From: Marchantia polymorpha subsp. ruderalis
Taxonomy: Eukaryota > Streptophyta > Marchantiopsida > Marchantiales > Marchantiaceae
Reading direction: 5' to 3'
DNA length: 64,000 bases
NCBI GenBank assembly: GCA_037833965.1
Contig: AP031352.1
Span: forward strand, 29,576,501-29,640,500
Shown piece after piece: positions 7,451 to 64,000 of this stretch (its first letter is position 1; each line of letters opens with the position of its first letter). The notes under the pieces were generated by a model. It searched no databases. It was not told where the DNA came from and was given only the letters and a program-made list of their open reading frames with translations. Position numbers and translations under genes: made by a program.

Positions 7451-8132
<682 letters not shown>

Positions 8133-14136: not shown

Positions 14137-14168
14137 GTTTAGAGGAGAGGCAGCGATCAGAGTCGAGC

Positions 14169-35808: not shown

Positions 35809-35815
35809 TTTTATA
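35809..35815 (-). promoter_or_regulatory. TATA box of the solo LTR
   Basis: TATAAAA on the minus strand, just downstream of the ORF3 stop. It has the same position relative to ORF3 as in elements II and III. Confidence 0.7.
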
Positions 35816-35851
35816 CCTTCTAAGTCCTAACTAGCACTACACTGCACTACG

Positions 35852-38726: not shown

Positions 38727-39299
38727 TGCGTTCTTGGAGTTCGCTCGCCCGCTCATTGTACTTCCGCACCGCTCGAGCTCCTTTCTTCCTCGGCAAACTC
38801 TAATCGCCCTCAATTCCAAATCACGCGCACTCACTTCTCCCTCAATCACCAAGAAATCCTCTGCGCGGCAATGTCGAGAAGGCTTAGTAGCCACCAGATG
38901 GACGCGCGCAGCTCGCACTAAAGAATGGAATCGCAAATTCCAAAATGGGACGCTCTCCGCCGCCCGGTCGAAGGTCATGGTCAGCTCTTGCTCGTGGAGG
39001 ACGTCTCAATTGATGGCCGCGCCGGCTCTACGCTGAAACGGTCTCCGCTCTCACGCGCGGCTTCACGCTCCGCCGTCGCCGATTAAACTCTCACGCTCGA
39101 ATTGGCGGATTTGAACTCCGCGAGCGTACTACACCGCGGACATGGGTGCGCAGCGCCGAAGGCGAGTTTTCCGCCTTGCGCGGTACACTCGTCGTACCGC
39201 TCCTCAGCCAATCCCCTTCTGCCTCGACGCGTGTGTCCGCATGTCGGACAAAAGTTCAACTCCCGCCTGCGCGCAGGCAGACTCCTCGGCGGATTCTCC

Positions 39300-39765
39300 G
39301 CCGGCGCGGAACTTCATCCTCCTGTGCACAGGCGCTCGCCTGTGCGCAGGCGAAATCCGTCCGCGGCGACGCGCTGGCGCGGAAGGCGTTGACCGCGGTC
39401 AGCCGTCTCCGTCCAGACTGTCCGTTCCTTGTCTCTTCGTCGGCGCTTCCGCCGCCGCAACTCCGTCCGTCCAAGAGCGCATCCATCCGTCCCGTCCGTA
39501 CGGTCCGTACGGATTTGACTATTCTGGCGGCTCCTTGCTCGCCCGCGGCGCTGCGCTGGCGCAGAAGGCGTCGTACACTTTCTACCTCACAAGGCGCATT
39601 TCTAGGGCCCAAGGCGGATTTCCCGCCGACGCCGAAGCGCCTGTGCACAGGCGGACGCCTGTGCGTAGGCGAACTTCGCGCCTACCTCAAACCCTATTTT
39701 GCCTGTGCACAGGCGAACTTCCTTCGTCCGCGCATAGGACAAAACTTCTCCGCCTGTGCGTAGGC
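39300..39765. repeat. Cluster of 16-bp palindromes CGCCTGTGCACAGGCG
   Basis: Several exact or near copies of this perfect palindrome lie in the non-coding U3 of the solo LTR, and related copies occur within ORF3 (37490-37640) and in the LTR of element II (47055-47135). Confidence 0.75.
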
Positions 39766-40180
39766 GAAGAGTTGAGTATCTTACAACCTTCATAACTCCC
39801 GGAGTCTTTATCCGCTATTGGCGTTCTTGAGCTCGTTGGAATCAGTGCGTCGAGCTCTTTCCAACGAGACCCTAGCTAAGTCAAGGCGTCCGGGGGTTGA
39901 CCTAAATATGAAGGATTTCCCTACCGCCGCGGACGCAGCTCCGAAGGCGGGTTTTGCGCCTTGCGCCGTAGGGATCCTAACTGCAGAGCTCGCAGGGAGG
40001 GTGGTGCCCGTCCTTACTGCTGCACCCAACTTCTAGATTCTACGAGATCCCTTGAGAATCTCCGCTATCTTCCGAATTCACTCTGTTTTGATGCACCGAA
40101 GGCTATTTACATTGCTGCCAGGGTACAGTTTTCCAAAAATGTTTTAATTTCCTCAAAATTACCAAAAGTGGGGTACCACA

Positions 40181-46400: not shown

Positions 46401-46552
46401 AGCTACTGCGCGCCACAGTTCCAGGGAGTCGCCAAGGGATTCGGTGGCGACTGAAATCCTCGAAACGGAGGATAAGACGAGCTCTGAAGAGCAGGAAGCG
46501 GATTCTGTGCAGAAAACGCCAACAGGGGTGTTGTGCGAGCAGATAGTCCCAC
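43440..46552 (+). mobile_element. LTR fragment A (second layer), 5' part with ORF3
   Basis: It starts TGTGGTAACACACTTTTTG, the same LTR start as element III (57825, minus), and is similar to that LTR throughout. It is cut at 46552 inside ORF3 by element II. Contains a conserved stem (CTGAGGTGTCT with AGACACCTCAG, about 43637-43715), the hairpin module, short GCGCTGGCATGAT tandem repeats (44138-44205) and the inverted repeat AAGAACGT/ACGTTCTT near 44527-44545. Its 3' part is beyond the window. Confidence 0.85.
44833..46552 (+). pseudogene. LTR-internal ORF3 (LTR fragment A copy), interrupted by element II
   Basis: The ATG at 44833 (MSKVPQLRVSPLRVPQ) is preceded by TTTGTGTGTGCAGG, a possible 3' splice site just upstream. 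The frame follows the intact copy of element III closely for about 573 codons, ending at the insertion point in GVLCEQIVPL. It then runs artificially into element II's LTR for about 24 codons. It retains the N-terminal domain with LDFLLWGWNWTCPEMV and GTLNHLSPYLIVFYRAMG, and the Arg/Thr/Ser-rich middle with palindromic GACTGCGAGTC-type repeats. The coiled coil is missing from this part. No stop or shift is seen before the break. Confidence 0.88.
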
Positions 46553-47277
46553 TGTGGTACCCCACTTTTGGCAATTTTGAGGAAATTAAAACATTTTTGG
46601 AAAACTGTACCCTGGCAGCATTGTAAATAGCCTTCGGTACATCAAAACAGAGTGAATCCGGAAGATCGCGGGGATTCTCGAGGGATCTTGTAGAATCTGG
46701 GATTTGGGGTGCAGCAGTAAGGACAGGCACCACCCTCCCTGCGAGCTCTGCAGTTAGGATCTCTACGGCGCAAGGCGCAAAACCCGCCTTCGGAGGTTGC
46801 GTCCGCGGCTGTAGGGAAACCCTCCATAATTAGGTCAACCCTCAGGCGCCTTGACCAAGTTAGGATCCCGTTGGAAAGAGCTCGACGCACTGATTCCAAC
46901 GAGCCCAAGAACGCTTGGAACAGATGAGGACTTAGGGAGTTATCGCTATTGGAAGAAACGGAGGCGGTCGCCTACGGCGGAAAGAGTTCGCCACCGGCGC
47001 GAATTCCGCCTACGCGGAAGGGGGAATCAAGTTTTGTCCTATGCGCGGACGAAGGCGTTCGCCTGTGCACAGGCGAAGTAGGGTTAGGGGAGGCGCGAAG
47101 TCCGCCTACGCACAGGCGCTCGCCTGTGCACAGGCGCTTCGGCGTCGGCGGAAAATCCGCCTTGGGCCCTAGAAATGCGCCTTGTGAGGTAGAAAGTGTA
47201 CGGCGCCTTCCGCGCCAGCGCGGCGCCGCGTACATCGGGCGTGCGGCCAAGGAACATCGGGCGTGCGGCCCCCGGCC

Positions 47278-48660
47278 ATGTCGCCTTCGGCGATAGATGT
47301 CCGCGGCGCTACGCTTGCGGCGGACAAGGCGCCGGCAAATGCGCCTGCGCACGGGCCGGGCACAGCCCCCACGGACCGATCAAGGGAGCAGCAACAGACG
47401 GAGGAGCGGAGTGACTGTCCGCGGGATGAAATCTCGATGCGCGATGCGCAATCAAACCCCGCGCAGTCACCCTCCGCTCGATCGCCTTCGGCGGCGGACG
47501 ACGGCGGCAGAGAGGATGCGGTAGACAATCAACAAGCAAGCGACGGGGATGCCGCACGGGTACATTCGCCTTCCGCCTTAGACATTTTGGCGACGAGCAG
47601 CGAGGCTGCAGCCGTGCCTTCGCAGGCAGCACACGTCGATGACGTGCAGCCCCACTCGGGGCAGTCGCCGACGCAATCAATTGCGACTGAAATTCTCCAC
47701 TCGGATGATGACGACGGAGGCTCCACGGAAGAAATGTCAGGAGCAGAAGACACCGAGGAGGAGGAGGAGGAAATTGTTGGAGCGCCGGCGGCGGCGCTCT
47801 CTGAGCAGGTGATTCCGTTGCTGCGGTACTTGGATCGCAAGGTCGATAAATACGCCGACCCACTCCAGCCGGGATCTTACATCGAGTTAGTGCGCAGGCG
47901 GACTCGCACTAAAGTCCACACCAGCAAGCTATTAGCTAGAGTGGACCAGGAGTTGAAGGAATTGAAGGAGAAGCATGCGTGCTTGTGGGGTCAGTACAAG
48001 CTTAATCAGAAATTCTACAAGCACTCCGAGAAGATGAAGGATGAGAAACTGGACGAGCTCACCAAGGAGCAGGTGAAGGTCAAGGAAGCACTCATTTCTG
48101 AGCAGGCCCAGAATCGGATTTTGTCAGAGGAGCTCGTGCGACAGACGCGGTTGTTGGAACAATGTCAGCTCGCACGGCAGGCGGATGAAGAGTTAATCCG
48201 CAGGTTACAGTCAGAGTGTGGCGAATTGAGAGCGCAACGTGCTGAAGCCGAATCGCAATTAGTGATAATTGAAGAGGATCGCAGGAAGGAGGCGGATCGC
48301 ACGAAGGTGGAGACGGCGAGGCGAGTCGCCCACTGTCTCAAGGGCTACGCTCACTGGGAAGTGAAGGCGCAGGAGAAACTCACACTGCGTGAGTTTGAAT
48401 TGCGCGCAGCCGGGTTGTTGTCAGGCGACAGTAGGAGTCGGCGGAAGGTAGCAAAGAAGCTCGATGCCTTTCTGTCGAAGGCACAGGATACCATGTCCGC
48501 CCTCGAAGGGGAGGTGTCCGCGGCGTTGCAGCGGTTGGGACTGCGCAGTCGAGCGGAAGATTGGCAGGGTAGGGAGTTAGTGCGCGGCAGTCGGCCGCGC
48601 AGGAGACGTAGTACAGGTTCCGCGGAGTGTAGTGTAGCGTGGTTCCGTGCAGGCGTGTAG
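47278..48660 (+). pseudogene. LTR-internal ORF3 (element II copy), N-terminally deleted
   Basis: About 460 codons from an in-frame ATG, corresponding to the middle and C-terminal parts of ORF3. It starts in the low-complexity region (MSPSAIDVRGAT), passes an acidic patch (DTEEEEEEIVG) and LSEQVIPLLRYLDRKVDKYADP, then a long coiled coil rich in Glu, Lys, Leu and Gln (about residues 200-370), and ends SRAEDWQGREL, then RRRRSTGSAEC. The N-terminal globular domain was lost in the LTR deletion. The preserved 3' half is intact, unlike the solo LTR copy. Confidence 0.82.
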
Positions 48661-49480: not shown

Positions 49481-49700
49481 TACGCTGCACTGTGCGACCT
49501 CCGAGTGCGCTCCGAGTGGACACTTGCAGTATTTCTGGGAGTGACAGTTGCCTGAGAATTCAAACTCCTCAATAGTCTGTTAAAACGTGACACTTTGTAC
49601 CCTGTGTGTTCCTCTGTCCCTGTGGGTTCGACCTTTCTACCACTATATTGCAGTTTTAGCCTTTAGTGGGTTATTACATAAGAAGCCGACAACTTCTTTT

Positions 49701-49718
49701 TGGCGCCGCTGCCGGGGA
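49701..49718 (+). promoter_or_regulatory. Primer-binding site (tRNA-Asp), element II
   Basis: TGGCGCCGCTGCCGGGGA is complementary to the 3' end of plant tRNA-Asp with one mismatch (C for T at position 9). It lies 22 nt after the LTR end, a gap also present in element III. Confidence 0.8.
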
Positions 49719-49764: not shown

Positions 49765-52596
49765 ATGTCGACTGGGGCTAGCGGGAGCAACCTAAGTGCT
49801 AGAGCTGTCCGCAAGTTCCGACGAGATTCAGAGAAGGCCGTGGAAGAGACACGGCGTCAAAACAAGAAAACACCAAAAAGAGTACCTAAGCCTAGTTCGG
49901 CCGACATCCTTGGGGATTCTACCCCCGGCGACTCGGAACCAAACTTGGTGCTTACAGTTCTACTAGATATTCCTTGCACGGACCCGCCTCGTGAAGTAGA
50001 ACCGACCGCCCGAGAACCGTCGACAGACACACCGATGGCGGACGGACAAGCCAATGTGCGGCTACCTCAGCCGATTACTAAACATTCCTACCCGAAGTAC
50101 AAAGGGAGTGGGGATGACGACGATGCAGATTCATACATCAAGTTGTTCGAATCGGTGTCTATTGCCAATCGCGAGATCGCAGACGACGACCGACTAAGGA
50201 TCTTTCCAAGCCTTCTGCGGAAGAAAGCGAGGAGTTGGTACAATCACGAGAGCATCGATCCGACTGGGTTGACAACATGGGCCTAGCTGAAGGAGAAGTT
50301 CCTCCGCCGCTTCCGCGAGCTCGGCTACGACAGCCGGGTTTTGACAAAGTTACGTAATTTGCAGCGAGAGAAGAAGGAGAGTCTGCGTGACTACACTGAG
50401 AGATTTCTGGACCTCCTTGACAGAATACCGAAAACAGGACCAGGGTCCCCTTTCTCGGTACAACAAGCTGTGGATTGGTACGTGACCGGTTTAACTCGGG
50501 AGATGGAGACTTTTTGCCGACGCAGCAAGTGCGACACTATTGAGGATGTGATTGCATCGGCAGAAGCCTTCGAAACTTCCACTCTCAACCGAAGAGGGAG
50601 AGAGAGACGGGAGTCGAAGGAGCGAAAACCGAAGGGAGGGCGAAGACGACGTAGAGGTACAACTCCGTCATCGGAGGAATCGTCTTCGGACGAGAACCGT
50701 TCCTCATCCGAAGAAGAGGAAACCTCATCGTCGGAGGAGGAGAAGAAGAGGAAGAAGCATGGGTCAGCGAAGAAAAAGGGCACCCGACGAGTGACTACGG
50801 ACAGAGCGCCGGGAGACATAGCCTCGAAGATGGAGACCCTTGTGAAGGACTTCGCCGATCTCAAGGTTCAAGTGGTAGGCGGGCATGATCGCCGAAAATC
50901 ACCCGGGAGAGTGCGAGCGAACTTATGGTGTACTACGTGCGGGGCGGTGGGACATGCAAACACCGAGTGCCTTACCACCCGTCCGTCATATCCAGTCAAC
51001 GCAGTAGAGTGGGCACAACCGTACTATGGAGAGCACCCTCAGTACTATGGAGAGGCTAGCGAAGAGACAGCCTACGCCGTCCAGTCGGTTCCTACCCCTC
51101 CTGCAGTTTCAGCAATGCAAGTCCCACGATATATTCCGGTGGATCGGGCCACTACAGTACCCGTGAGGCGGAGAGCACCTCCAGGGACGTTTGACCCACC
51201 GCCACCGCGAGCTTGTTATAATTGCGGGGAAGTTGGGCACTTCTCACCGCAGTGTCCCCATCCAAAAAGGCGAAACGATTATGCTCCGACATGTAGTAAT
51301 TGCAAGAAGATCGGGCATACTGCGCCAGAGTGTGATCAGCCACCAGTCCCTCGGCCAGCGGTACGATTTGTGAACACTCCTGCCAAGGAGGACGTCCAAG
51401 TTAACCAGGTCGAAGTAGGTTCAGACGGGGATGACGAAGACGAAGAATGGCCGGCTGAAGAGGTTATGTGCGCACGGGTCGAAACTCGTAGTTCCAAGAA
51501 ATCGAAGGAGCAAGAGCGTGACACTCGCAAGCACGAACGGAGAACCGACGACCGGACGGGAAAAGGGAAGGAGAAGACATCCAGCAAGTCCGACTTGCGA
51601 CCTGCTCGGAAGTCTTCGGCTACGCGAGAGGCACCAGCAGTGCGCCCCCAGACAGCAGTCGAGGACGAGACAGTGCGCCTACTGAAACGGGACTATGCTC
51701 CGGATATCCGCAACGAGGTAACCAACCTGTTGAAGGAAGCGATCCGCACTCAAAAGGACCCACCGCGGCCAGACTTGACATCCTCCCTTGGGGCGAAGTT
51801 GGCAGCCACCGTGGAACCTCGCAGAGCGTCGCCGACCCCGGCGACCCAACGCGCCCACTATGACTTGGTCGAAGATCTCGGGAGTCGAAAAGTGAACATC
51901 ACGTTCAAGCAGCTCTTGGAGGACAATAAGACGTATCGGAGAATGTTGATGCTTTCGCTACGGCATCCGCGGAAGCCGCGCGCATCCACATCCTCTCAAG
52001 TATATCAAGTGAAGAGCGAAGACCAAGGGCCACCAGAGATCGATGTGGAAATAGCAGGGTGTTGTGTACGCAGGGTGCCAATCGACTCTGGATCAGGAGT
52101 CAACATAATGACGGAGGATACAGCGAGAGCCTTGGGGTTCAGTCAATACGAACCCTCAAAGCGTGTGTTGAGATTAGCGGATCAGACGCGGAGAATGCCT
52201 GCAGGTATGCTGCGCAATGTCAAGACAATCATCGGGGGTGCGGACTTTCGGTTGACGTATATCATCCTTCAACCGATGATGAAGCAGGGCTATGACGTTC
52301 TGCTCGGGCGACCATGGCTATATGGTGCACAAGTCAGATGTGATTGGCGAAGACATCGCCTTAAGTTTCCTCATCCTTCGGAACCGACCAAAACCATTAC
52401 GGTGCCCTGGAATAGGGTCAGACACGAAGGAGAGACCCCATCGACAAGTGCAGGTTACACATCGGGCGAGGACAGTGAGTCGACCGCGCGATCGGATTCC
52501 AGTGGTACCGAATCCGATTATTTCGTGGGATTCGTTGCCTGCTGTTCGGTGGGAGAAGAAGAAGAGCCGGAAGCTATTCAGCCGGAAGACGAATAG
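49765..52596 (+). pseudogene. Element II Gag-protease, one internal nonsense codon
   Basis: The frame runs from the ATG at 49765 to a TAG at 52594-52596 and is continuous except for a TAG at 50284-50286, where element III has a CAG (TWAQLKEKF). The parts are the Ty3/gypsy Gag capsid region (SYIKLFESVSIANRE through WYNHESIDPTG to VDWYVTGLTREMETF), a Ser/Glu/Lys-rich linker, three CCHC zinc knuckles (CTTCGAVGHANTEC, CYNCGEVGHFSPQC, CSNCKKIGHTAPEC) and a retropepsin domain with VPIDSGSGVNIM. The internal stop makes this copy non-functional. The terminal stop is in a leaky context (see 52594). Confidence 0.9.
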
Positions 52597-52976: not shown

Positions 52977-53880
52977 TGTAATAACCCACCAAAGGCTAAA
53001 ACTGCAGTATGGTGGTAAAAAGATCGAACCCACAGGGACAGAGGCAACACACAGAGTAAAAGTGTCACATTTAACAGACTTTTGGTAGAGTTTGAATTCT
53101 AGGCGACTGTCACTCCCAGAAATACTGCAGTGCTCGACTCGGAGGAGGATCTCAACTCGGAGGATGCTCGGAGGATGCACGGTACAGCTTGGTCACTCAA
53201 CACACACACACACACCTGAAACTGGCAAAAAGCACAACTCGGAGGTCGGTCAGGACCTCCGCTTCGGATTTCAGGAGGAAAGTGTCTCGCAAGTTCACTC
53301 AGAGGTTCTGCAGGAAGTGCCTCCCACTCCGGCTTTTACTGCCCTTCCGCCAGGAACTAGCGGGGGTACCCGGACTGGACTTCTCACTTCGGAACGAAGC
53401 CTCTACGTACGCCGTGGACGTCACCCTCGACTATCACACAAAACGCAGGGAGTGCAGACCCGACTGAGAACTTACTGAAAACACGATCCAGTAACACACA
53501 CACAACCTGAATTACAAACCAAGGTTTACACGAAGTAATGAAACTTCACATTGGCATTCAGGGGAAACTTCCCGTAGGAGTACAATCAGGATATGTCACT
53601 CGAAGGAGTAAGGGGGAACTGTTCACGTATCTAACTCGCAGCCGGCTCTGAGTATCAGAAATCACCCGCAGGTGCAGATCCGCACTACTCAAGTCTCTAA
53701 CCGGGTACTAGCTCTGAACATTCAGCCGAAGGCCTTCAACTACAACATACGGTAACTTCGCTATGCTGCAGCTTCTCTACGTGGTGCCAGGACCAAAATG
53801 CACAAACACGCCAAGAAAGTGAGTTCCTGATCTGCACTTCCGAAACTGGAAGAGTCCCAAGGCAAAACGCCTTGATCTAC

Positions 53881-53886
53881 TTTATA
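53881..53886 (-). promoter_or_regulatory. TATA box of element III LTR
   Basis: TATAAA (context GGGTATAAAGTAG) on the minus strand, 34 bp after the ORF3 stop codon. It marks the boundary of U3 with R/U5, so ORF3 lies wholly within U3. Confidence 0.72.
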
Positions 53887-53919
53887 CCCTCAAAAGATCC
53901 TAACTAGCACTACGCTATC

Positions 53920-56469
53920 CTATCTACCACTCGCAGTATCTGCGCGAAACCAAACTACTCTACTGCACTCAGCAGATCCGGTGCTGCGCCTCCTGCGCGC
54001 CGGACTGCTCCGCGTACTATCTCTACCTTGCCAGTCTTCCGACCGGCGGCGTAACCCCAGGCGTCGGAGCGCTGTGGTGACTTCCGACTGCAAGTGCGCC
54101 ATAGTGTCGCGCGCACCCGACAAGAAGGTTTCTAATTTTCTCGCCACTCGCCGCCGACTCCGACTGTCACCTTCCGTCAATGCCGCCGCCCGAAGCTCGA
54201 ACTCCCTGAGTGTGATCCTCTCTTGGGCTGCCACCTCCCAATGGGTGTATCCTTTTAGACAACGAGTCACCCGTGCCGCCAACTCTCCTCGTGCCCTGCA
54301 GCTGCTCTCCACCTCTGCCAGCTGCATTTCTAATCCCGCACGTTGTGCCCTTAAATCCGAGCACTCGGATTGCAAGTTGCACAACAGCTCCTCATCCTCC
54401 TTGCGGGCTCTTTGACTTTCTTCTAAGGCGCGCGTCTGGCGCGCAAGCTCGGCTGCTAGGACTTTGTTCTGTCTCCGCTCCTCCTGCAGTTCCAACTCGA
54501 TCTTTGCCCGTATTAGTTCGGCATCCGCCTGACTTTTCGTCGCCGCATCCTCCTTCTGCTGCTGCAAGGCTTGGTATAGCTTCTGGGTGACCGCCAGGTG
54601 TTGTTTGAGGGCGGTGTTCCTTTCCACATATACTTGGCAACTAGAGGCCCACTTTGCCACCTTGATCCTCGTCCTTCGCCTGATAGTCTCCACATAAGAC
54701 TGCGGTTTTAAGGCACTTCCGTATTTGGATGTCTTGCGATCCAGATATCGCAGGAGTGGAACTATCTGTTCGCACAGCACCCCTGTTGGCGTTTTCTGCA
54801 CCGAATCTGCTTCCTGCTCTTCCGAGCTCGTATCATCCTCAGTCTCGAGGATTTCAGTCGCCACCGAATCCCTTGGCGACTCCCTGGAACTGTGGCGCGC
54901 AGCAGCTTCTGCTGCGACTGCTGCTCCACTGCCTGCTAAAATATCCAGGGCAGTGGGAGATCCCACTGCTTGAGCCCCTGTTCCGGCTCGATCTTCGGTT
55001 TGTGAAGGGGTCGACGCCGCAGTGACTTTTGTCACTCTTGCACCGCCCGCTTCTGCTGCCTGTCCTTCCGGCGCCATCTGCGCGGAAGGTGTCCTTGCTG
55101 AAGGTGCGTCCGCCGAAGGCGTCCGCACACTGGTCGTTGGCCCCATCCGTCTCGCAGTCGGCGAATCCGGCTGACTCTCTGTTGTCCGACTCGCAGTCGG
55201 CCGACCAGCAGTTGTCCGACTGGGAGTCGGATACACCCTGCGCGTCTTGACTCCACTTGGCCTGCTTGTTGGGGGCGTTCTTCCAGAAGTGCCTTCCGCC
55301 GAAGACGACCCTTTGAGGATTGTTGGCTCGTCAGCCAAACTCTCTTCTGCTTCCGGCCTGCTGTCCGGTTCAACGCGCCGTTCAGTTGGCCTTCCTTCCG
55401 CTTGTCGACCTTCAGTCATCCGACTCGCAGTCGGCCGGCTGTCAGTCCGTCCATCTCCTCCCGAAGGCCGTGGTGCCTTCTGTGCAGAGGTATCTGCCGT
55501 CTTCCCTAGAATCTGAGCGATTATCTCTTCCTGTGTGAGATTCCGCCGGGTCGGAGTTCGCCTGGTCTCCTCAGTAACAGTTGGCATTTTGCGTGCCCTC
55601 TGTTTTGGTCGACTGTGAGGCTCGGGGGTGGGCCGACCACGAGTCGGCGCAGCTGGTACTTCCGGCTGCCTGTCCTCAGGTCTCTCATCCCACTTCCGCT
55701 TTCGCGGAATGCGCTCACTTCGACGTTCTTCTGCTGCTCTTGCTGGAGCCGGAGGCGTACTGGCAGGTTCCTCGTCCGGATCCGTGTCTACTTCGGCCTC
55801 CCTCGAATATCTACCTGGATAAGCCCGGGTCAGCTGCGGAAACCGAGTCTTCTCAGCATTCGTCAAACATCCCATCGCCCGGTAAAACACGATTAAGTAA
55901 GGCGATAGATGATTGAGGGTTCCTCCCTTCTCTTCTTGCGCATGTTGGCGCGTCACCTTCCACAGGAGCCGTGCCCAATGCACCGGAGCTCCTGACAGCA
56001 CTAGCTCCACGAACTCTACCTGCCAACCATGCATGTAAGCGGTCTTGGTCGGCTGCAATATCTGCAGCAATGCCGTCGCGACATTTCTCCGCAATCGATC
56101 CTTGTAATCCCGTGTCCGGAAACCGTTCTTGGGATGTCTGGCCACTTTGAAGAGCTCATTGTAAGAGACTTCTTCCTCCTGGGACACCTTCACGCTATCG
56201 GCCTCGAAGAGGAGATCCCCTTCCTCGCCGGCACACCTGCCCAACACCTGCGCCCAATTGCAAATGTCCCATCTCTCTGGGTGTGGGCGAAATCCGCGAG
56301 AAGGCTTGTGTCTCTCTTGCAGATACTCGCGCACCATCTCCGGACATGTCCAATTCCACCCCCATAGGAGAAAATCGAGCTTCAGTCTCAACAGCACATC
56401 TTGAAATGCGCGTAGACCGATCTGCGGCACCCTGAGTGGAGACACTCGCAGCTGGGGAACCTTCGACAT
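53920..56469 (-). CDS. LTR-internal ORF3, intact (849 residues), function unknown
   Basis: I chose the ATG at 56469 (MSKVPQLRVSPLRVPQIGL), shared with the LTR A copy; the upstream open frame begins only at a TTG. Residues about 1-215 form a conserved domain rich in Trp, Arg and aromatics (LDFLLWGWN, WDICNWAQVLGRC, GFRTRDYKDRLRRN, GTLNHLSPYLIVFYR). About 215-575 is low-complexity, Arg/Thr/Ser/Pro-rich with many RPTxSR-type repeats. LCEQIVPLLRYLDRK introduces a coiled coil of roughly 200 residues, and the end is basic (ARRRRSTGSAEC). No transmembrane helix or signal peptide is evident, so it is not a typical env. A TGTGTGTGTGCAG just before the ATG could be a splice acceptor. Domain family not recognised. 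Confidence 0.85.
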   Translation of the reverse strand: MSKVPQLRVSPLRVPQIGLRAFQDVLLRLKLDFLLWGWNWTCPEMVREYLQERHKPSRGFRPHPERWDICNWAQVLGRCAGEEGDLLFEADSVKVSQEEEVSYNELFKVARHPKNGFRTRDYKDRLRRNVATALLQILQPTKTAYMHGWQVEFVELVLSGAPVHWARLLWKVTRQHAQEEKGGTLNHLSPYLIVFYRAMGCLTNAEKTRFPQLTRAYPGRYSREAEVDTDPDEEPASTPPAPARAAEERRSERIPRKRKWDERPEDRQPEVPAAPTRGRPTPEPHSRPKQRARKMPTVTEETRRTPTRRNLTQEEIIAQILGKTADTSAQKAPRPSGGDGRTDSRPTASRMTEGRQAEGRPTERRVEPDSRPEAEESLADEPTILKGSSSAEGTSGRTPPTSRPSGVKTRRVYPTPSRTTAGRPTASRTTESQPDSPTARRMGPTTSVRTPSADAPSARTPSAQMAPEGQAAEAGGARVTKVTAASTPSQTEDRAGTGAQAVGSPTALDILAGSGAAVAAEAAARHSSRESPRDSVATEILETEDDTSSEEQEADSVQKTPTGVLCEQIVPLLRYLDRKTSKYGSALKPQSYVETIRRRTRIKVAKWASSCQVYVERNTALKQHLAVTQKLYQALQQQKEDAATKSQADAELIRAKIELELQEERRQNKVLAAELARQTRALEESQRARKEDEELLCNLQSECSDLRAQRAGLEMQLAEVESSCRARGELAARVTRCLKGYTHWEVAAQERITLREFELRAAALTEGDSRSRRRVARKLETFLSGARDTMAHLQSEVTTALRRLGLRRRSEDWQGRDSTRSSPARRRRSTGSAECSRVVWFRADTASGR

Positions 56470-57825
56470 TGCGGTGCCTGCACACACACAAACGTTCTCC
56501 CTTTCGCTCGCTCTCTCACAATCGCCACTGTGCGTCGGCCACTCAAGCACTGACTGCTCACTCTCTCTGCGCTCGTTCAAGATCGCTACTCACAATTCTT
56601 TCAAGGTCCGCCAAGATCCTTGCGCAACTCGTCTCCGCACTCTCTACTCTCACTGCAGGTCGCTCCGCCCTTGCGCGTAATCTTGGAACTGGAAATCGCA
56701 AAGTCAAGAATGGGAGAATGAGACTGGAGCGCAGTCTTTTCTTCTCCGATTTCAAGAACGTCCAACGTTCTTACTGGTTGCAACGTACGCAGCCGGCTAT
56801 ACGGCTTAACGGTTCGCCCTTTGCATGCGCGAATTCACGTCTCCGCATTGCGCGCATTCGCATGCTTAAACGTTGAATTCTCCCGCCGCCGCCACCTTCC
56901 GGACTCGAGTCCGCTGCAGGGTATACGTCGGCCCTGTTGTCTTTTCCTAACCCGCCCTTCCCCGGAGGCGTGTCGCCGCTGATGCGGTCATTATCCGTCG
57001 GCGCCTTGCTGGAGGCGCACATCCAGCCGGAGCGAATTACGCCGGCGCGCAGTCGTACCGCCTATTTTGTCCTTTATGCCTCGTCCGTTGCTGCCAGCGC
57101 ATATCCGTCAGCGCAACTCATGCCAGCGCATCCGGCCGTCAGCGCCACGTCGGAGGCGTACATCCGACCGGCGCTTTCCTTCCATGAACAGCCGCCAAGG
57201 GCGCTTCCGACTCTGAGTTGGTTTCCTCCTGTGAGCGCGTGATTCCGCCGAAGGCGCATCGCCGAGGGCGTACGGGAATCCTTTCCGGCTGTGAACCCTA
57301 GCGCGAACGGCGCATGTCCGGCTACGAGTTTTCCGACGCTCATAACTTCTCCATTCCTGATCCATCTCCGGCGCTCTTGGACTCGTTAGAACGAGCGTCC
57401 CGAGCTCTTTCTAATGCAACTTCAACCAACTGGATCTACCGTGTATCCCGATTGTTATGAAGGTTTTCCCTTTCCGCGCTAGCGGCGCTTCGCCGAAGGC
57501 GCACTCATGGTCGGATGCCTTTAGAGGTCCGGGCCCTTCTCCTGACGTCTTTAGCAAAACCTCCTCCTGAGGTGTCTGCGCCGGAAGCGTAGCTTCCTTA
57601 TACGCTAGAGGCGCGTGAGTAGAGACACCTCAAAAAGGAGCTTTTGCCGAAGGCGCCGAAGACGTTGGCGTTGGTACATCCGACTACGTGATTCTTTGTG
57701 CCCTCGTGACGATCTCATCAATCCACTCTATTTAGCGTACCCTTCTCTAGCTACAAACACTGCTTTGGTACTAGTTTTCTAAAATTGTTTAAATTCTGCA
57801 AAAAAACAAAAAGTGTGTTACCACA

Positions 57826-57838
57826 TGCCCCCCTCCTC
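57826..57838 (-). promoter_or_regulatory. Polypurine tract of element III
   Basis: GAGGAGGGGGGCA on the minus strand directly abuts the LTR start TGTGGTAAC. It primes plus-strand DNA synthesis and fixes the LTR boundary, which proves ORF3 is inside the LTR. Confidence 0.85.
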
Positions 57839-57862: not shown

Positions 57863-60703
57863 TTACACGTGGTATTTCTTCAGACGCCATCCGTTCACGC
57901 GGGTGCCTAACCATTCTCCCGTCAGTTCTGCGAGTTGGATGGATCCATTTGGGAAAACTTCTATCACCTTGTAAGGTCCCATCCACCTCAAGTGGAGCTT
58001 GCCTGGAAATCTAGCATGTCTGCTATCGTATAGCAGAGCCAAGTCGCCCTTCTCCAGCAGTACTGGTTTGAGCCTTCGATCGTACTTCTCCTTCCGCCTG
58101 AGTTGTAATTGCTTTGTCCGATTTTCGGCCTCTTGACGTCTTTCCTCCAGTGCCATTACCTCTTGCAGTCGATATGCCTGACTTTCTTCCGCGTCCAGCC
58201 TTCTCTGATCTAAGGTCCTCTTGGTAGGTATCTCGAATTCGATGGGTAAGATCGGATGCTGCCCATAAACTAGGAAGTAAGGTGTTTGCCTGGTGGTGAC
58301 TTTTTCTGCCGTTCTATATGCCCATAAGGCGGCCGGTAGCTTGGTGTCCCAGTCATGAGCATGGTTTACAGTCACTTTGAGGAGTATCTTACAGAGTAAT
58401 CCATTGGACTTCTCTGTCAGACCATTTGCCTTGGGGTTGTATGGAGTAGTCTTCCGATGCTTAATCTGGAAGTGCCGCGTCAAACTTTCTATCACCTGAT
58501 TCAGAAAGTGCGTTCCTCTGTCACTGACTATTTCTAGGGGGCACCCGTAGCGTGTGATGATGGATTCGAATAGGAACCGTGCTACTGCGGCTGCGTCGTC
58601 GTGCCTTGTGGCTTCTGCCTCCACCATCTTGGTCGCATAGTCTGTTGCTACCAATATGTAGCGCCTGCGCGTGCCTTTAGTGACAGGTTGTATTGGTCCC
58701 ACGAAGTCGATCCCCCATTTTTCAAATGGTGCCAATGGCATGATTGGTGTAAGAGGCCATCTCGTGGTCGGAGTCGGCCTTCCCGTCCTCTGGCAGCTGT
58801 CGCATTTGCGAACGTAGTCGTGTACATCTTTGAACATCGTCGGCCACCAGTATCCTGCATTCACAATTTTGGTCACTGTATTTCTGGTGGCGTAGTGACC
58901 ACCAGCGTCTTCTGTGTGCATGGCTTTTACAACTCGCGGGACTTCAGACTCCTCTAGACATCTGCACAGCCTGTCGTCTGCCATTTTCTTGAACAAGACC
59001 CCTTGTTGGAGCTGGTAAGGTCCCGCTTTATGTACGAAGACTGTGCGCTGCTCTGCATCCAATCCTTCCGGACATTGGAGTGTGAGCAGGAACCTGTATA
59101 AGTCCGCGTACCTGGACTCATGGCTGGCGGACAACTGAAAAAGTTGTTCGTCGGGAAAATCATCCACTACTTCCTCTTCTATGGGTTCGGTCCATAGTCG
59201 GGAGAGGTAGTCCGCGTTCTCATGGTGAACGCCTTTCCGTGTCTGTACAGTATAGGTGAATTCTTGCAGCAGTAGTACCCACCTGGCAATTCGTCCGGAC
59301 AGATCCGCCTTCTTCACCAGGTGCTGTAAGGCGTAATGATCTACATGAAACACGAACTCATAGCAGATCAAATAATGTCGGAACTTCTTGCAGGAGTACA
59401 CCATTCCTAACGCCTCCCTCTCAGTTGTCGTGTACTTCTTCTCTGCTGCTGACAACTGACGACTCGCGAAGTAAATCGGGTAGTCTTTCTTGTTGTCATC
59501 CTTCTGACTGAGAACCACCCCGATTGCAAACGCCGACGTGTCTACATAGACATGGAAAGGTCTGTTCCAATCCGGACTTCTCAGAACCGGAGCAGTCGTC
59601 AGTTTGGCTTTGAGCGTTTCAAAGGCCAGCTGTTGCTCCTTGCCCCACACATAGGGTTCATCCTTCTTAAGCAGCTTCGTCAGATCGGCTGCCAAGATGG
59701 CATACATATTTATGAACCTTCTGTAATAACCTACATGGCCAAGGAAGGCCCTCAACTCACGCAGATTCGTTGGCGGCTGCAGTTCAAGAATAATCTTCAC
59801 CTTCTCTACATCCACTGCAATGCCATCGGACGAAACTCGGTGCCCCAGCAGGATTCCGCTGGTCATGAAGAAGAAACATTTCTCAGGGTGTAAGGACAAG
59901 CTGCTCTCCCTACATCTGTCGAACGTTTGCCGAAGATGGTTAAGGTGCTCCGACCTCTTACCGAAGACACAAAAGTCGTCGATGAAAATTTCTAGGAACT
60001 TCCTCAGGTGCTCTTGGAAAATGTTTGTCATCATCCGCTGGAACGTCGCTGGCGCGTTGCACAGACCGAACGGCATCTTGTGATAAGCATAGGTTCCCCA
60101 GTCGGTCGTGAAGGTTGTTTTGTCCTTGTCCTGTTCCCTGATGGACACCTGGTTGTAGCCGGAGAATCCGTCTAGGAAACTGTAGCATTCATGCCCTGCT
60201 ACATGGTCTAAAATAGAGTCCGTGAAAGGAAGAGGGTGATGGTCCTTCCTCGTTGCTGCGTTCAGCTTTCGGAAGTCCTGGCACACCCGAATCTTACCCG
60301 TCAATTTCTTGGGCACGATCACGATAGGCGACACCCACTCGCTACTGAGTACCGGGTAGATGATTCCTGCGCTCAGGTACTTATCGATTTCGTCCTTCAC
60401 CAATAATGAATATTTTGGGTTGAGCCTGTATTGGCGTTGGCGAACCGGAACTGCCTCGTCCAACAAGTCGATCCTGTGCTCTCCATACCTTGCAGGTATG
60501 CCTTTCATGTCTTCAATCTTCCATGCGAAGACATCCTCATACTGGCGAAGAAACGCCTGTACCCTGTTCAACTCTTCTCCTTGTACCTGGCTTGACACCT
60601 TCAAGCCTTTACCTGGACTGAGCTGCAGTTCGCAGCAATCACTCGGGTCAACAATCCCCTCTGTGTGACTGATCTCGCTTCTGCCCAGTCCGGCTGCTAG
60701 TTG
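57863..60703 (-). CDS. pol: Element III Pol: reverse transcriptase, RNase H, integrase
   Basis: In frame with gag-protease and continuing from its UAG without an ATG; the first 33 codons after the stop are open, so it is made as a Gag-Pol readthrough product. Numbering from the TTG at 60604: RT has SPIVIVPKK (92-100), DGFSGYNQ (145-152), MPFGLCNAPATFQ (177-189) and the active site FIDDF (207-211). RNase H has D355 (VYVDTSAFAIG), E397 and D465. Integrase has the zinc motif H563, H570, C601, C604 and catalytic D633, D695, E731 (D-x35-E). The C-terminus (WMGPYKV onward) has no chromodomain. No internal stop is present and catalytic residues are all there. Stop at 57863-57865. Confidence 0.95.
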   Translation of the reverse strand, partial: QLAAGLGRSEISHTEGIVDPSDCCELQLSPGKGLKVSSQVQGEELNRVQAFLRQYEDVFAWKIEDMKGIPARYGEHRIDLLDEAVPVRQRQYRLNPKYSLLVKDEIDKYLSAGIIYPVLSSEWVSPIVIVPKKLTGKIRVCQDFRKLNAATRKDHHPLPFTDSILDHVAGHECYSFLDGFSGYNQVSIREQDKDKTTFTTDWGTYAYHKMPFGLCNAPATFQRMMTNIFQEHLRKFLEIFIDDFCVFGKRSEHLNHLRQTFDRCRESSLSLHPEKCFFFMTSGILLGHRVSSDGIAVDVEKVKIILELQPPTNLRELRAFLGHVGYYRRFINMYAILAADLTKLLKKDEPYVWGKEQQLAFETLKAKLTTAPVLRSPDWNRPFHVYVDTSAFAIGVVLSQKDDNKKDYPIYFASRQLSAAEKKYTTTEREALGMVYSCKKFRHYLICYEFVFHVDHYALQHLVKKADLSGRIARWVLLLQEFTYTVQTRKGVHHENADYLSRLWTEPIEEEVVDDFPDEQLFQLSASHESRYADLYRFLLTLQCPEGLDAEQRTVFVHKAGPYQLQQGVLFKKMADDRLCRCLEESEVPRVVKAMHTEDAGGHYATRNTVTKIVNAGYWWPTMFKDVHDYVRKCDSCQRTGRPTPTTRWPLTPIMPLAPFEKWGIDFVGPIQPVTKGTRRRYILVATDYATKMVEAEATRHDDAAAVARFLFESIITRYGCPLEIVSDRGTHFLNQVIESLTRHFQIKHRKTTPYNPKANGLTEKSNGLLCKILLKVTVNHAHDWDTKLPAALWAYRTAEKVTTRQTPYFLVYGQHPILPIEFEIPTKRTLDQRRLDAEESQAYRLQEVMALEERRQEAENRTKQLQLRRKEKYDRRLKPVLLEKGDLALLYDSRHARFPGKLHLRWMGPYKVIEVFPNGSIQLAELTGEWLGTRVNGWRLKKYHV

Positions 60704-60706
60704 CTA
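60698..60706 (-). promoter_or_regulatory. Leaky stop context between gag-pro and pol, element III
   Basis: TAG CAA CTA on the minus strand. It matches UAG-CAR-YYA and occupies the same place as TAG CAA TTA in element II although flanking codons have diverged. Pol is in the same frame. Confidence 0.78.
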
Positions 60707-63532
60707 TTCTTCATCCGGATACACCTCGTCTCCTTCCTCCTCAATGGAGCAGCAAGTGACGTAGCCCACAAATTCTTCCGACGTTTCGGTCTCTGAAGTG
60801 CAAGATGAGCTGGTCTCCCCTCCGGTTGTGTAACCGGAGGTGGTGGAAGGTGTTTCGCCCTCATGGGGTACCTTGGTCCACGGTACGGTAATGACAGTCG
60901 GAGGGTCAGCAGGGCTACGGAACTGTAATCTCTTCCTACTCCAGTCACACCTTGCTTTGGCATCGTATAGCCACGGTCTGCCAAGCAGCACATCATAACC
61001 TTTCTTCATCAGAGGTTGCAGTATTATGTAGGACAGTTGAAAGTCCACTCCTCCAATGTTGGTTCTCACATTGCTCAACATTCCTAGTGGCATTCTGCGT
61101 GTTTGATCGGCCAGTCGCAATACTCGGGATGTAGGTTCGAAGGTCTGGAACCCCAAGGAGTTCGCTGTCTCCTCGGTCATGATATTCACGCCCGAGCCGG
61201 AGTCCACTGGTACCTTCTGTATGACGCAGCCTCCGATCTCTACTTCGATCTCTGGAGGTCCCAGGTCTCCTCCTTCCACTCTGTACACAGCCGGAAGTTT
61301 CTCTTTTCGGGGTTTGCGTGGTCGGCGCAACGAAAGCATCAGCATCTTTCTGTACGTCTTATTGTCTTCCAACAACTGGTGGAAGGAAATATTTGCCCTC
61401 TGGCTCCCTATGTCTTCCACTATGTCGTAGGGAGTGTTGGAAGTCACAGCCGGAAGTTTTCCTGTACTCGCGGTCGGAAGTGGTGTAGGGGGCCTAACCG
61501 CCTTCCGGACGTCGGATGTCATTCCGTCGCCCAGTGCTTCCTTGATGAGGTGACTCACCTCATCTTTGATGTCCGGAAGGTAATCTCGAGTCCGGAACTC
61601 TTCTGAATACCTGTCCGCTTTTTCTGAGTTCTGCTCCGGATGGGTGTTTCTCATAGCCGGAGGTGTACCCGGCCTTCTCCTCGGGCCTTCTCTAACTTCT
61701 TTAGACTTCCTCCTCTCTTCCCTACGCTCGAGGCGGCGAGTGTCCTCGTGGCCTTCTCCTCTCCTCTTCGAACTTCGGGTTTCTACCCGGCCGCACATTA
61801 CTTCTTCCTCTGGCCATACTTCGTTTTCTTCAGCTGGGTCCAGACTCAGTTCTACCTGGTTGACCTGCACCTCTTCCTTGCCAGGTGTCGATACGAAACG
61901 CACGGCTGGCCTAGGGAGTTGTGGCTGGTCACATTCGGCTGCTGTATGTCCAGACTTCTTGCAATTGCTGCACAACGGTGCATACCCCATTGGCTTCCTC
62001 GGGTGGGGACAGCTTGGCGCGTAATGCCCCATGTCTCCGCAGTTGTAGCAACCATCGAATTGTGGTCGAGGTCGGTTGTGATTGCCTGGAGGTGCCATGC
62101 GTCTTGGTGGGAGTGTACCCGCCATTTCCCTCGGAACAAAGCGCGGTATATGCACCGGTGGGTTCGGAGTTGTAGCTGGAGCTGTCTGTACCGAGTAGGC
62201 GGTGTCCTCAACCTGCTCAGCATAATACATAGGCGGCTCAGCATAATACATGGGGTTCTCCCACTGTGGTGCCCATTCGACCGCATTCACTGGGTAAGAT
62301 GGCCTCGCGGACATGCACTCCGTGTTGGCATGTCCCACCTGTCCGCACGTAGTACACCAGAGATTCGCTCGTTGTCTCGCAGGTGATTTACGTCGGTCTT
62401 GGCCTCTCACTACATGAACTTTCAGGTCCGCAAAATTCTTCACCAGGTTGTCTACCTTGGCTGCGATGTCCCCTTGAGTCTTCACTGGGATTCCCTTACC
62501 TCGATCCTTCTTCTTGATCGCACTGCGTTTCTTCTTCCGTCTTTCTTCTTCTGAAGATGACGAGTCCTCTTCCTCTTCCGAGGAAGAACTTGATTCGGAG
62601 GAGCTTGATTCTTCTGTCGAGGAAGGCGAGTTCCTTCTCTTCCGACGTCCGCCTTGCGACTTCTTCTTCGTCGACCGTCGGTCGCGTCTTCGAGTGTCAA
62701 GGGTTGACGTCTCAAAGGTCTCCGCGGAAGCTATCACATCTTGGATTGTGTCAGTCTTGCCTCTCCTACAGAAGGTCTCCATTTCTCTTGAGAGCCCTGT
62801 CACATACCAATCCACTGCCTGTTGTACCGAATACGGTTCTCCCGGGCCTGTCTTCGGAATTCGATCTAGGAGGTCTTGGAATCTCTCAGTGTAGTCTCGA
62901 AGATTCTCCTTCCGCTCGCGTCGAAGATTTCGAAGCCGGGTCAGAACTCGACTGTCATATCCGAGTTCGCGGAACCGCCTCAGAAACTTTTCCTTGAGCT
63001 GAGCCCAGGTCCGGATGCCAGTGGGGTCGGTGCTCTCATGGTTGTACCAGCTACGCGCTCGTCTGCGTAGCAGGCTAGGAAAGATTCGTAATCTGTCTTC
63101 ATCACTGGTCTCACGATTGGCGATGGAGACAGACTCGAAGAGCTTTATGTATGAATCTGCATCATCGTCGTCGCCCGTTCCCGTGTATCTTGGATACGAA
63201 TGTTTGGTGGTAGGTTGGGAAAACGCCTGGCGGAGATTGGCTTGATGTTCTGCCATCGGTGATCCTGTCGACGGACTGATCCTAGGTTGGCCAAACTCAG
63301 GAAGAGTTCCTGTCGGAGGGATGTCCAATAGAACTGTTAGCTCAATGCTCTCGGTAGGTGAACTGGAACGCCTTTGTCTTCCAGTAGTCGGTGATGGCGA
63401 TCTTTCTGCAGAGTCCTCACCGGGAGTCTTCTTTTTAGTTCGCCGTTTTGTTTCCACGGCTTTTTCTGAATCTCGACGGAGTTTCCGTGTGGCTCTCGCA
63501 CTCAGGTTTCCCACACTATCGCTCGTCGACAT
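60704..63532 (-). CDS. gag: Element III Gag-protease polyprotein
   Basis: The 942-residue frame from the ATG at 63532 is intact. The Retrotrans_gag-type capsid region is at about 137-285 (SYIKLFESVSIANRE to METFCRRGKTDTIQDV). An acidic/basic Ser-rich linker spans about 290-360. Three CCHC zinc knuckles follow: C393-C396-H401-C406, C495-C498-H503-C508 and C521-C524-H529-C534. The aspartic protease has its catalytic triplet at D777-S-G. The protein ends in the leaky UAG. It should form the virus-like particle and process itself. Three knuckles is more than the usual one or two. Confidence 0.95.
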   Translation of the reverse strand: MSTSDSVGNLSARATRKLRRDSEKAVETKRRTKKKTPGEDSAERSPSPTTGRQRRSSSPTESIELTVLLDIPPTGTLPEFGQPRISPSTGSPMAEHQANLRQAFSQPTTKHSYPRYTGTGDDDDADSYIKLFESVSIANRETSDEDRLRIFPSLLRRRARSWYNHESTDPTGIRTWAQLKEKFLRRFRELGYDSRVLTRLRNLRRERKENLRDYTERFQDLLDRIPKTGPGEPYSVQQAVDWYVTGLSREMETFCRRGKTDTIQDVIASAETFETSTLDTRRRDRRSTKKKSQGGRRKRRNSPSSTEESSSSESSSSSEEEEDSSSSEEERRKKKRSAIKKKDRGKGIPVKTQGDIAAKVDNLVKNFADLKVHVVRGQDRRKSPARQRANLWCTTCGQVGHANTECMSARPSYPVNAVEWAPQWENPMYYAEPPMYYAEQVEDTAYSVQTAPATTPNPPVHIPRFVPREMAGTLPPRRMAPPGNHNRPRPQFDGCYNCGDMGHYAPSCPHPRKPMGYAPLCSNCKKSGHTAAECDQPQLPRPAVRFVSTPGKEEVQVNQVELSLDPAEENEVWPEEEVMCGRVETRSSKRRGEGHEDTRRLERREERRKSKEVREGPRRRPGTPPAMRNTHPEQNSEKADRYSEEFRTRDYLPDIKDEVSHLIKEALGDGMTSDVRKAVRPPTPLPTASTGKLPAVTSNTPYDIVEDIGSQRANISFHQLLEDNKTYRKMLMLSLRRPRKPRKEKLPAVYRVEGGDLGPPEIEVEIGGCVIQKVPVDSGSGVNIMTEETANSLGFQTFEPTSRVLRLADQTRRMPLGMLSNVRTNIGGVDFQLSYIILQPLMKKGYDVLLGRPWLYDAKARCDWSRKRLQFRSPADPPTVITVPWTKVPHEGETPSTTSGYTTGGETSSSCTSETETSEEFVGYVTCCSIEEEGDEVYPDEE

Positions 63533-63575: not shown

Positions 63576-63593
63576 TCCCCGGCAGCGGCGCCA
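63576..63593 (-). promoter_or_regulatory. Primer-binding site (tRNA-Asp), element III
   Basis: TGGCGCCGCTGCCGGGGA on the minus strand, identical to element II and one mismatch from full complementarity to plant tRNA-Asp. It lies 22 nt from the LTR end at 63616. Confidence 0.8.
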
Positions 63594-63615
63594 AAAAGAA
63601 GTTGTCGGCTCCTTA

Positions 63616-64000
63616 TGTAATAACCCACCAAAGGCTAAAACTGCAGTATGGTGGTAAAAAGATCGAACCCACAGGGACAGAGGCAACACACAGAGTAAAA
63701 GTGTCACATTTAACAGACTTTTGGTAGAGTTTGAATTCTAGGCGACTGTCACTCCCAGAAATACTGCAGTGCTCGACTCGGAGGAGGATCTCAACTCGGA
63801 GGATGCTCGGAGGATGCACGGTACAGCTTGGTCACTCAACACACACACACACACCTGAAACTGGCAAAAAGCACAACTCGGAGGTCGGTCAGGACCTCCG
63901 CTTCGGATTTCAGGAGGAAAGTGTCTCGCAAGTTCACTCAGAGGTTCTGCAGGAAGTGCCTCCCACTCCGGCTTTTACTGCCCTTCCGCCAGGAACTAGC
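63616..64000 (-). repeat. Element III 5' LTR, partial (R/U5 end only)
   Basis: The last 385 bp of the 5' LTR before the window ends. No difference from 52977-53361 was found by eye. Confidence 0.92.

What the first reader, a model, noticed from the sequence alone, without database searches (positions are those of the whole stretch)
52977..57825. An intact 849-codon ORF lies entirely inside the LTR of a Ty3/gypsy element
Seen: the LTR start is fixed by an adjacent polypurine tract (57826) and the LTR end by identity with the 5' LTR start next to the PBS (63616). The ORF (56469-53920) lies between them, in sense, ending 34 bp before the LTR TATA box. The same ORF, diverged, sits in the same place in a solo LTR (34845-40180), in LTR fragment A and, shortened, in element II. 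Known: coding genes wholly within U3 are rare; mouse mammary tumour virus Sag is the classic case. Inference: these elements would carry two copies of the gene, keep it in solo LTRs after internal loss, and may express it from the 3' end of genomic RNA or a U3 promoter.
Basis: partly seen in the sequence, partly recalled or inferred. Interest (0 to 1): 0.9.

Follow-up and report, generated by a model that had tools for sequence, protein, structure and literature searches.

The report
Retrotransposon gene inside its terminal repeats
A liverwort jumping element keeps a complete protein gene inside its end repeats instead of its middle, so an intact insertion carries two copies and the gene can survive when the rest of the element is lost; natural selection has preserved the protein, but its job is unknown.

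Summary
Confirmed and extended. The window lies in a 241-Mb genome whose ORF3 proteins match Marchantia polymorpha. The 849-codon ORF3 lies wholly inside the 4,849-bp LTR of a Ty3/gypsy element (III). Two further LTRs in the window are solo LTRs with perfect duplications, and both hold ORF3. Of the 53 element-III-type copies scored (top of 13,271 candidates), 53 have no stop and 42 form pairs 8.4-10.7 kb apart. Of 22 other copies whose LTR ends were read, 13 are solo LTRs. ORF3 is under purifying selection: pN/pS in its N-terminal region is 0.084 between III and solo LTR A, against 0.73 expected neutrally. Short-LTR derivatives without ORF3 also lack pol and most of gag, so ORF3 probably acts in trans. 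No Pfam, NCBIfam or PDB relative was found. Function is inferred only: most likely a nuclear accessory protein. Structure prediction never ran; expression could not be tested. MMTV Sag (recalled) is the analogue in position; a sequence relation was not shown.

The parts
52977..57825 (-). 3' LTR of element III (4,849 bp, TG..CA ends); 5-bp target duplication CCGAT at 52972-52976
53920..56469 (-). ORF3, 849 codons, LTR positions 1357-3906: conserved N-terminal region (about 1-235), S/T/P/R/A-rich middle with basic cluster PRKRKW, basic charged C-terminal third
53881..53886 (-). TATA box (LTR position 3940), 33 bp after the ORF3 stop; also present in the solo LTR, in element II's 5' LTR and in an older LTR, so ORF3 lies in U3
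57826..57838 (-). polypurine tract GAGGAGGGGGGCA next to the 3' LTR
57863..60604 (-). pol of element III, uninterrupted: RT, RNase H, integrase
60704..63532 (-). gag-protease ORF of element III, uninterrupted, ending in UAG-CAA-CUA; pol continues in the same frame
63576..63593 (-). primer binding site TGGCGCCGCTGCCGGGGA, 22 nt from the LTR end (tRNA-Asp type by recall)
63616..64000 (-). visible part of the 5' LTR of element III; continues to G000:C3:29644964 and carries an uninterrupted ORF3
34845..40180 (-). solo LTR, second subfamily (5,336 bp), perfect duplication AGTAG at 34840-34844 / 40181-40185
36369..38978 (-). ORF3 of the solo LTR, 869 codons; family start codon at 38726; C-terminal part broken (premature stop and 1-base indel), homology continues to 35861
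43440..46552 (+). solo LTR A, 5' part; 3' part ends at L010:9248; duplication GGGAT
44833..46554 (+). ORF3 of A, first 572 codons of the family alignment, no stop; the rest is open to its own stop in L010
46553..49678 (+). 5' LTR of element II, with a 2,277-bp deletion that removes the N-terminal part of ORF3; 3' LTR at L010:2068-7468 keeps an open ORF3
47245..48660 (+). remaining open C-terminal part of ORF3 in element II's 5' LTR
49701..49718 (+). primer binding site of element II
49765..52596 (+). gag-protease of element II (1 stop inside, ending in UAG-CAA-UUA); element III is inserted downstream in pol at 52976/52977

Best explanation
ORF3 is an accessory gene of a Marchantia Ty3/gypsy lineage that resides entirely in the U3 part of the LTR. 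Shown: both LTRs of an element carry it; solo LTRs keep it; selection has maintained the protein. Follows from established LTR replication: the U3 of the 3' LTR is copied to both ends at each reverse transcription, so the two copies start identical. Inferred: because ORF3 lies between the purine tract and the TATA box, it is the last cistron of genomic RNA, expressed from a spliced or subgenomic RNA or from a promoter in the first 1.35 kb of U3. Inferred: the protein acts in trans as a nuclear accessory factor (regulation of LTR chromatin or transcription, or nuclear entry), since it has no strongly hydrophobic segment, has conserved basic clusters, and short-LTR derivatives lack it together with pol and most of gag.
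For: Two solo LTRs with perfect duplications in the window and 13 of 22 further LTRs whose ends were read. Complete 5' LTR of III with ORF3. 53 of 53 scored copies uninterrupted, 42 of 53 in pairs. Selection: III vs A dN/dS 0.203 (0.141-0.282) over 572 codons and 0.068 (0.030-0.114) in the N-terminal region. Against a neutral model with the noncoding LTR spectrum: 0.231 vs 0.772 and 0.084 vs 0.731 (0 of 500 simulations as low in each); second subfamily 0.414 vs 0.841 (0 of 200). One coding indel (6 bases) vs 10 noncoding indels, none a multiple of 3; 0 stops in A where neutral drift gives 4.5 (P 0.005). Two array units without ORF3 share the LTR from ORF3's last base onward at 97%, keep primer site and purine tract, and lack pol and all but about 106 codons of gag. 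Maximum hydropathy 1.22 over 19 residues.
Against: No transcript or protein evidence was available. The nuclear role rests on basic clusters only. A crude heptad test did not support a coiled coil. The splice-acceptor-like CAG before the ATG is shared by III and A but not by the second subfamily. Selection is weaker in the middle of ORF3 (0.511) and between solo LTR and element II (0.426, 0.254-0.750). Many copies carry stops: 26 of 52 in the second subfamily, and most older ones. Counts come from best-scoring lists, not a census. LTRs without ORF3 exist. In the second subfamily an in-frame stretch before the start codon also shows low pN/pS (0.435 vs 0.952), so it is coding there or the test is biased.
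Confidence: 0.72

Rival explanations
1. ORF3 is an ordinary extra ORF between pol and a short 3' LTR, and the LTR start was misplaced.
For: This is the usual place of sense extra ORFs in plant elements (PMC7264820). Pol's stop is only 37 bp from the LTR start.
Against: The 5' LTR of III holds the same 4,849 bp; solo LTRs that include ORF3 are flanked by 5-bp duplications.
Confidence: 0.01
2. The ORF3 stretch is kept for a cis role (U3 DNA or RNA signal) and its open frame is a by-product.
For: U3 normally holds cis signals; CCTTCGGC occurs 5 times in LTR III, all on one strand, against 0.1 expected.
Against: Codon-position pattern and the single in-frame indel point to protein selection. Array units lacking ORF3 have normal LTR ends, PBS and PPT.
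Confidence: 0.04
3. ORF3 encodes a VANC-like sequence-specific anti-silencing protein that binds motif clusters in its own LTRs.
For: VANC21 binds short motifs arrayed in one orientation in noncoding parts of its own transposon (PMC5735166, passages). CCTTCGGC: 24 of 24 sites in five LTR stretches lie on one strand, 17 of them outside ORF3; 0 in the internal regions of III and II and 0 in window 1-33000. Basic clusters recur in the family.
Against: The sites are partly homologous between LTRs or in tandem units, and 7 of 24 lie in ORF3, so they are not independent. No DNA-binding domain was recognised. VANC is from a DNA transposon.
Confidence: 0.2
4. ORF3 is an env-like or cell-exit protein.
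For: Its RNA position, last cistron after pol, is that of env.
Against: No strongly hydrophobic segment (maximum 1.22 over 19 residues, and 0.99 at the N-terminus); no env-related Pfam hit.
Confidence: 0.04
5. ORF3 is a captured host gene carried passively without use to the element.
For: No relative of known function; the 43 named hits of 48 are all M. polymorpha.
Against: Selection, and presence in at least two subfamilies with 43% ORF3 identity and 60-63% gag identity. The one candidate for a stand-alone host copy that I looked at, P0020, reads as an LTR relic.
Confidence: 0.03

Closest known systems
Mouse mammary tumour virus Sag (recalled; superantigen papers seen only as a search listing)
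   Same: A protein gene wholly inside U3, duplicated in both LTRs, sense strand.
   Different: Animal retrovirus, superantigen (recalled). No sequence relation was shown. Here the host is a liverwort, the LTR is 4.8-5.4 kb and the protein about 850-960 aa.
Extra ORFs of plant Ty3/gypsy elements (Athila ORF1, Retand Transposase_28, Ogre plant mobile domain; PMC6317226 passages, PMC7264820 text)
   Same: Long extra ORF without a known role; some products are nuclear (Grande gene23).
   Different: The review places them between pol and the 3' LTR or otherwise in the internal region. The survey records only 5' or 3' part of the element, so it does not exclude LTR-resident cases. ORF3 does not match the three Pfam models named there.
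Retrosat2 / RIRE3 / RIRE8 ORF0 (PMC3485330, passages)
   Same: Unusually long LTRs (about 3 kb or more) plus an extra ORF of unknown role, found in one plant group.
   Different: ORF0 is described upstream of gag-pol; no passage I saw places it in the LTR.
[not shown]
   Same: Ty3/gypsy, same genus, no additional RNase H; Pfam shows none in element III either.
   Different: Identity with element III was not tested; the passages do not mention a gene in the LTR.
VANC anti-silencing proteins of VANDAL elements (PMC5735166, passages)
   Same: Element-encoded accessory protein; motif clusters in one orientation in the element's noncoding DNA.
   Different: DNA transposon with an internal gene; ORF3 binding untested and no sequence link seen.

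Membership tests
Ty3/gypsy LTR retrotransposon (element III) | Pol order RT, RNase H, integrase, with Ty3-type gag | tested here: met
   Pfam order in P0003 and Retrotrans_gag in P0004; best PDB match Ty3 Gag-Pol, E 2e-85
Ty3/gypsy LTR retrotransposon (element III) | Two LTRs, PBS, PPT, 5-bp target duplication | tested here: met
U3-resident gene of MMTV Sag type | Whole coding sequence between PPT and promoter, in both LTRs | tested here: met
   promoter inferred from a TATA box only
U3-resident gene of MMTV Sag type | Sequence relation to Sag | tested here: inconclusive
   No Pfam match of note (E up to 10) and no PDB match (E up to 1); Sag itself was not fetched or compared
U3-resident gene of MMTV Sag type | Expressed from spliced or U3-initiated RNA | not testable with these tools
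   no RNA data
Plant extra-ORF families PF10536, PF04195, PF03078 | Match to the Pfam model | tested here: not met
   none of the three among hits of 16 members and 7 proteins at E up to 10; HMMER filters drop most matches above 0.1
env-like ORF | Internal position between pol and 3' LTR | tested here: not met
env-like ORF | Transmembrane segment | tested here: not met
   hydropathy only
VANC-like anti-silencing protein | Clustered one-orientation motif in own noncoding DNA | tested here: inconclusive
   enriched and one-stranded, but sites are not independent
VANC-like anti-silencing protein | Sequence-specific DNA binding and loss of methylation | not testable with these tools
   bench test needed
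Tat clade | Placement by RT phylogeny | not tested
   no reference set was at hand

The most novel reading that the evidence does not exclude
The LTR works as a stand-alone gene cassette. Because the trans-acting accessory gene sits in U3, the host's usual way of disabling elements, recombination to a solo LTR, leaves it intact. The genome then carries many free-standing ORF3 genes that can keep serving the full-length elements and their ORF3-less derivatives, possibly as a nuclear anti-silencing factor that binds the CCTTCGGC sites of the LTRs.
Probability: 0.25. Interest if true: 0.92.

Novelty: new variant of a known kind. Interest (0 to 1): 0.82.

Why it matters
LTRs are treated as regulatory DNA, and solo LTRs as empty remains. 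Here a gene family of about 850-960 codons, shaped by selection, is inherited through the LTR. That makes some solo LTRs coding loci, explains dozens of 'hypothetical proteins' annotated in a model plant as pieces of one element gene, and offers an experimental case (Marchantia) of what has been known mainly from MMTV (recalled). It also makes it testable whether placing a gene in the LTR protects it from host removal.

Tried and rejected
Sequence relatives outside Marchantia: three protein searches. Of 48 hits, 43 are named, each M. polymorpha, and 5 come from an unnamed source; scored candidates were capped at 8,000. Viral contigs: 8 pattern matches, none a relative. Pfam, NCBIfam and PDB: only weak or low-complexity hits below the curated cut-offs, best Extensin-like 1.9e-4 in the low-complexity part of P0008 and CENP-K 0.0018 in P0010.

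Host domestication: P0020 looked like one open copy among broken relatives. Its longest open run is 296 codons; a degraded R-U5 lies nearby and no gag or pol was found in 12.5 kb, so I read it as an LTR relic.

Coiled coil: weak hits to coiled-coil models, but a heptad test equalled shuffles; not claimed. Spliced mRNA: acceptor-like site not shared by both subfamilies. The noncoding divergence used for the second subfamily (12.6%, as many transversions as transitions) probably contains alignment errors. Rows dropped: one search used 12 second-subfamily copies of 52; one search used 10 for the noncoding spectrum and the 8 of equal length for codons; III-type tests used 8 of 53. Loci L037-L048 were fetched and not analysed. 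In the ORF3-less units the only ORF3 matches are antisense and low in complexity (26-43%).

Papers: no report of a gene inside a plant LTR appeared in the listings (titles and abstract openings); subscription journals are mostly not held, and one likely survey is not held.
Full report
1. Where it is. Protein relatives of ORF3 that bear names are M. polymorpha (16 of 16 hits; 43 of 48, the other 5 unnamed). The window is G000:C3:29576501-29640500 of a 241,466,482-bp, 9-contig genome. The species name is an inference from matching proteins.

2. The observation. Element III (minus strand) has an uninterrupted gag-protease (942 codons) and pol (913 codons; RT, RNase H, integrase) and an LTR of 4,849 bp. 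ORF3 occupies LTR positions 1357-3906; the TATA box is at 3940. The complete 5' LTR, outside the window, was fetched: 5 mismatches in 4,849, ORF3 open, one amino-acid change, and CCGAT on both outer flanks.

3. Independent proof that the LTR includes ORF3. Solo LTR 34845-40180 is flanked by AGTAG on both sides. Solo LTR A is flanked by GGGAT on both sides and is split by element II. In the genome, 53 element-III-type copies were scored of 13,271 first-look candidates; all 53 cover residues 1-848 or 1-849 without a stop, and 42 of 53 lie in 22 adjacent pairs 8.4-10.7 kb apart, about the span of one LTR plus the internal region. For the 11 unpaired ones both ends were read: 5 are solo LTRs with perfect duplications, 4 are 5' LTRs (primer-site side follows) and 2 are 3' LTRs (purine tract precedes). 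Of the second subfamily, 52 copies were scored of 12,531 candidates, only 2 of 52 in a pair, and 26 of 52 have no stop in the span searched, which leaves out the last part of the gene. Ends were sought for 11 of them: 8 are solo LTRs with perfect duplications (two pairs share flanks, so 6 distinct insertions), 1 is a 3' LTR and 2 could not be resolved at the 5' end. These lists hold the best-scoring copies; counts are lower bounds and biased to intact copies.

4. Selection. III vs A: dN/dS 0.203 (0.141-0.282) over 572 codons; 0.068 (0.030-0.114) for residues 1-235; 0.511 (0.307-0.831) for 236-540. Solo LTR vs element II, 299 codons: 0.426 (0.254-0.750). Comparisons between subfamilies are saturated at synonymous sites. 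With a neutral model that uses the substitution spectrum of the noncoding LTR, including CpG: III vs A 0.231 vs 0.772 and, for residues 1-235, 0.084 vs 0.731, 0 of 500 simulations as low in each. Eight III-type copies: 0.169 vs 1.038, 0.7% of 300 simulations as low, on few changes. Second subfamily, 8 copies: 0.414 vs 0.841, 0 of 200. Amino-acid identity of III and A (0.914) exceeds all 1,000 simulations without selection (maximum 0.864), and no stop occurs where 4.5 are expected. Second-subfamily copies are largely dead solo LTRs, so values near 0.4 are what past selection followed by decay would give. Older subfamilies, at about 45-90% identity to their queries, mostly carry stops: 73 of the 82 main matches (my count by eye) have at least one stop in the span; several partial matches have none. 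The family is thus old in this genome, with two younger waves.

5. What the protein is. No family match above a curated cut-off and none in PDB. It has a conserved N-terminal region of about 235 residues, a variable S/T/P/R/A-rich middle with a cluster such as PRKRKW in 26 of the 50 sequences scanned (many are fragments that do not reach it), and a strongly basic last third. There is no strongly hydrophobic segment. Structure prediction was requested 20 times and the machine was busy each time.

6. How it probably works. ORF3 begins 1.35 kb after the purine tract and ends 33 bp before the TATA box, so it belongs to U3. In genomic RNA it would be the last cistron; each reverse transcription copies that one U3 to both LTRs (established replication scheme). 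A short-LTR derivative, of which I read two tandem-array units, shares the LTR from the last base of ORF3 onward at 97%, keeps primer site and purine tract, has about 106 codons of gag, and lacks pol and ORF3 (L093, L094). Lacking ORF3 together with gag and pol suggests that ORF3 is a protein supplied in trans and that LTR ends, primer site and purine tract do not need it in cis. How the gene came into the LTR is unknown; a shift of the purine tract from behind ORF3 to just behind pol (pol's stop is 37 bp from the LTR start) would do it, and is inference only.

7. Comparison. The review of additional ORFs (PMC7264820, text parts 1 and 2 of 3) describes them in the internal region, mostly between pol and the 3' LTR. 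The large survey (PMC6317226, passages) sorts them only by 5' or 3' part of the element, does not mention Marchantia in its main text, and names three common domains, none of which matches ORF3. The passages I saw of two Marchantia papers, PMC9985172 and PMC5784723, do not mention a gene in the LTR. MMTV Sag is the positional analogue (recalled). I call it a new variant of a known kind: an LTR-resident gene is known from MMTV; the plant case, the protein and its spread through solo LTRs did not appear in the listings searched.

Re-reading the calls changed the following: pol's stop lies 37 bp, not 24, from the LTR start; 7 of 24 motif sites, not two or three, lie in ORF3; A's second half and II's 3' ORF3 were checked for stops; the relation to Sag is now 'inconclusive'.

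Noticed in passing
60704-60706 (-) and 52594-52596 (+): Gag ends in UAG-CAA-CUA (III) and UAG-CAA-UUA (II), the TMV-type readthrough context (recalled). Pol continues in the same frame, and the 33 codons after the stop are conserved without a start codon: stop-codon readthrough likely makes Gag-Pol.
   Followed up: partly
63594-63615 (-), 49679-49700 (+), L010:7469-7484: A conserved 22-nt spacer separates the 5' LTR end from the primer binding site. Element II's right end carries 14-16 nt of that spacer beyond the LTR, as if integration used an untrimmed cDNA end; its duplication is imperfect (CCCAC / CTCAC).
   Followed up: partly
L093, L094 (G000:C5:13296058-13299137, C3:30630693-30633732): Non-autonomous derivative with 2.4-kb LTR, no ORF3, no pol, stub of gag, in tandem arrays of 3,080 and 3,040 bp.
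   Followed up: partly
34785-34844 and 40181-41117: The solo LTR is inserted at the TATA box of an older LTR, in which no ORF3 was recognised upstream.
   Followed up: partly
G000:C2:15265396-15289240 and C6:21294472-21318344: Three ORF3 copies at equal steps of 10,649 and 10,660 bp: probably LTR-internal-LTR-internal-LTR tandems.
   Followed up: no
LTRs in window; 41750-43439: CCTTCGGC is enriched in LTR stretches, all 24 sites on one strand, absent from the internal regions of III and II and from window 1-33000.
   Followed up: partly
44833-46554 vs 54754-56469: Synonymous divergence between III and A is uneven (0.35 in residues 1-235, 0.13 in 236-540), which suggests mosaic exchange between LTR lineages.
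   Followed up: no
G000:C5:27072140 / 27190861 and C6:9705080 / 9870873; C1:2524093, 2551453, 2917536, 3275474: Copies with identical flanks or scores, which suggests segmental duplications, several on the small 5.6-Mb contig C1.
   Followed up: no
14106-15242: Trichodiene-synthase-like (TRI5, E 2e-13) terpene synthase ORF.
   Followed up: no
7458-8132: Ribosomal protein L5 family ORF.
   Followed up: no
43197-43439: 31-bp tandem array (7.8 copies) that is the target of solo LTR A.
   Followed up: no
27546-27627 and 32645-32726: Two tRNA-Ser(GCT) genes about 5 kb apart.
   Followed up: no
P0019 (MARPO_0006s0274): An annotated gene model fuses an ORF3 piece, a K/E/R/D-rich stretch and gag, as expected if annotation runs from a 5' LTR into the element.
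   Followed up: no
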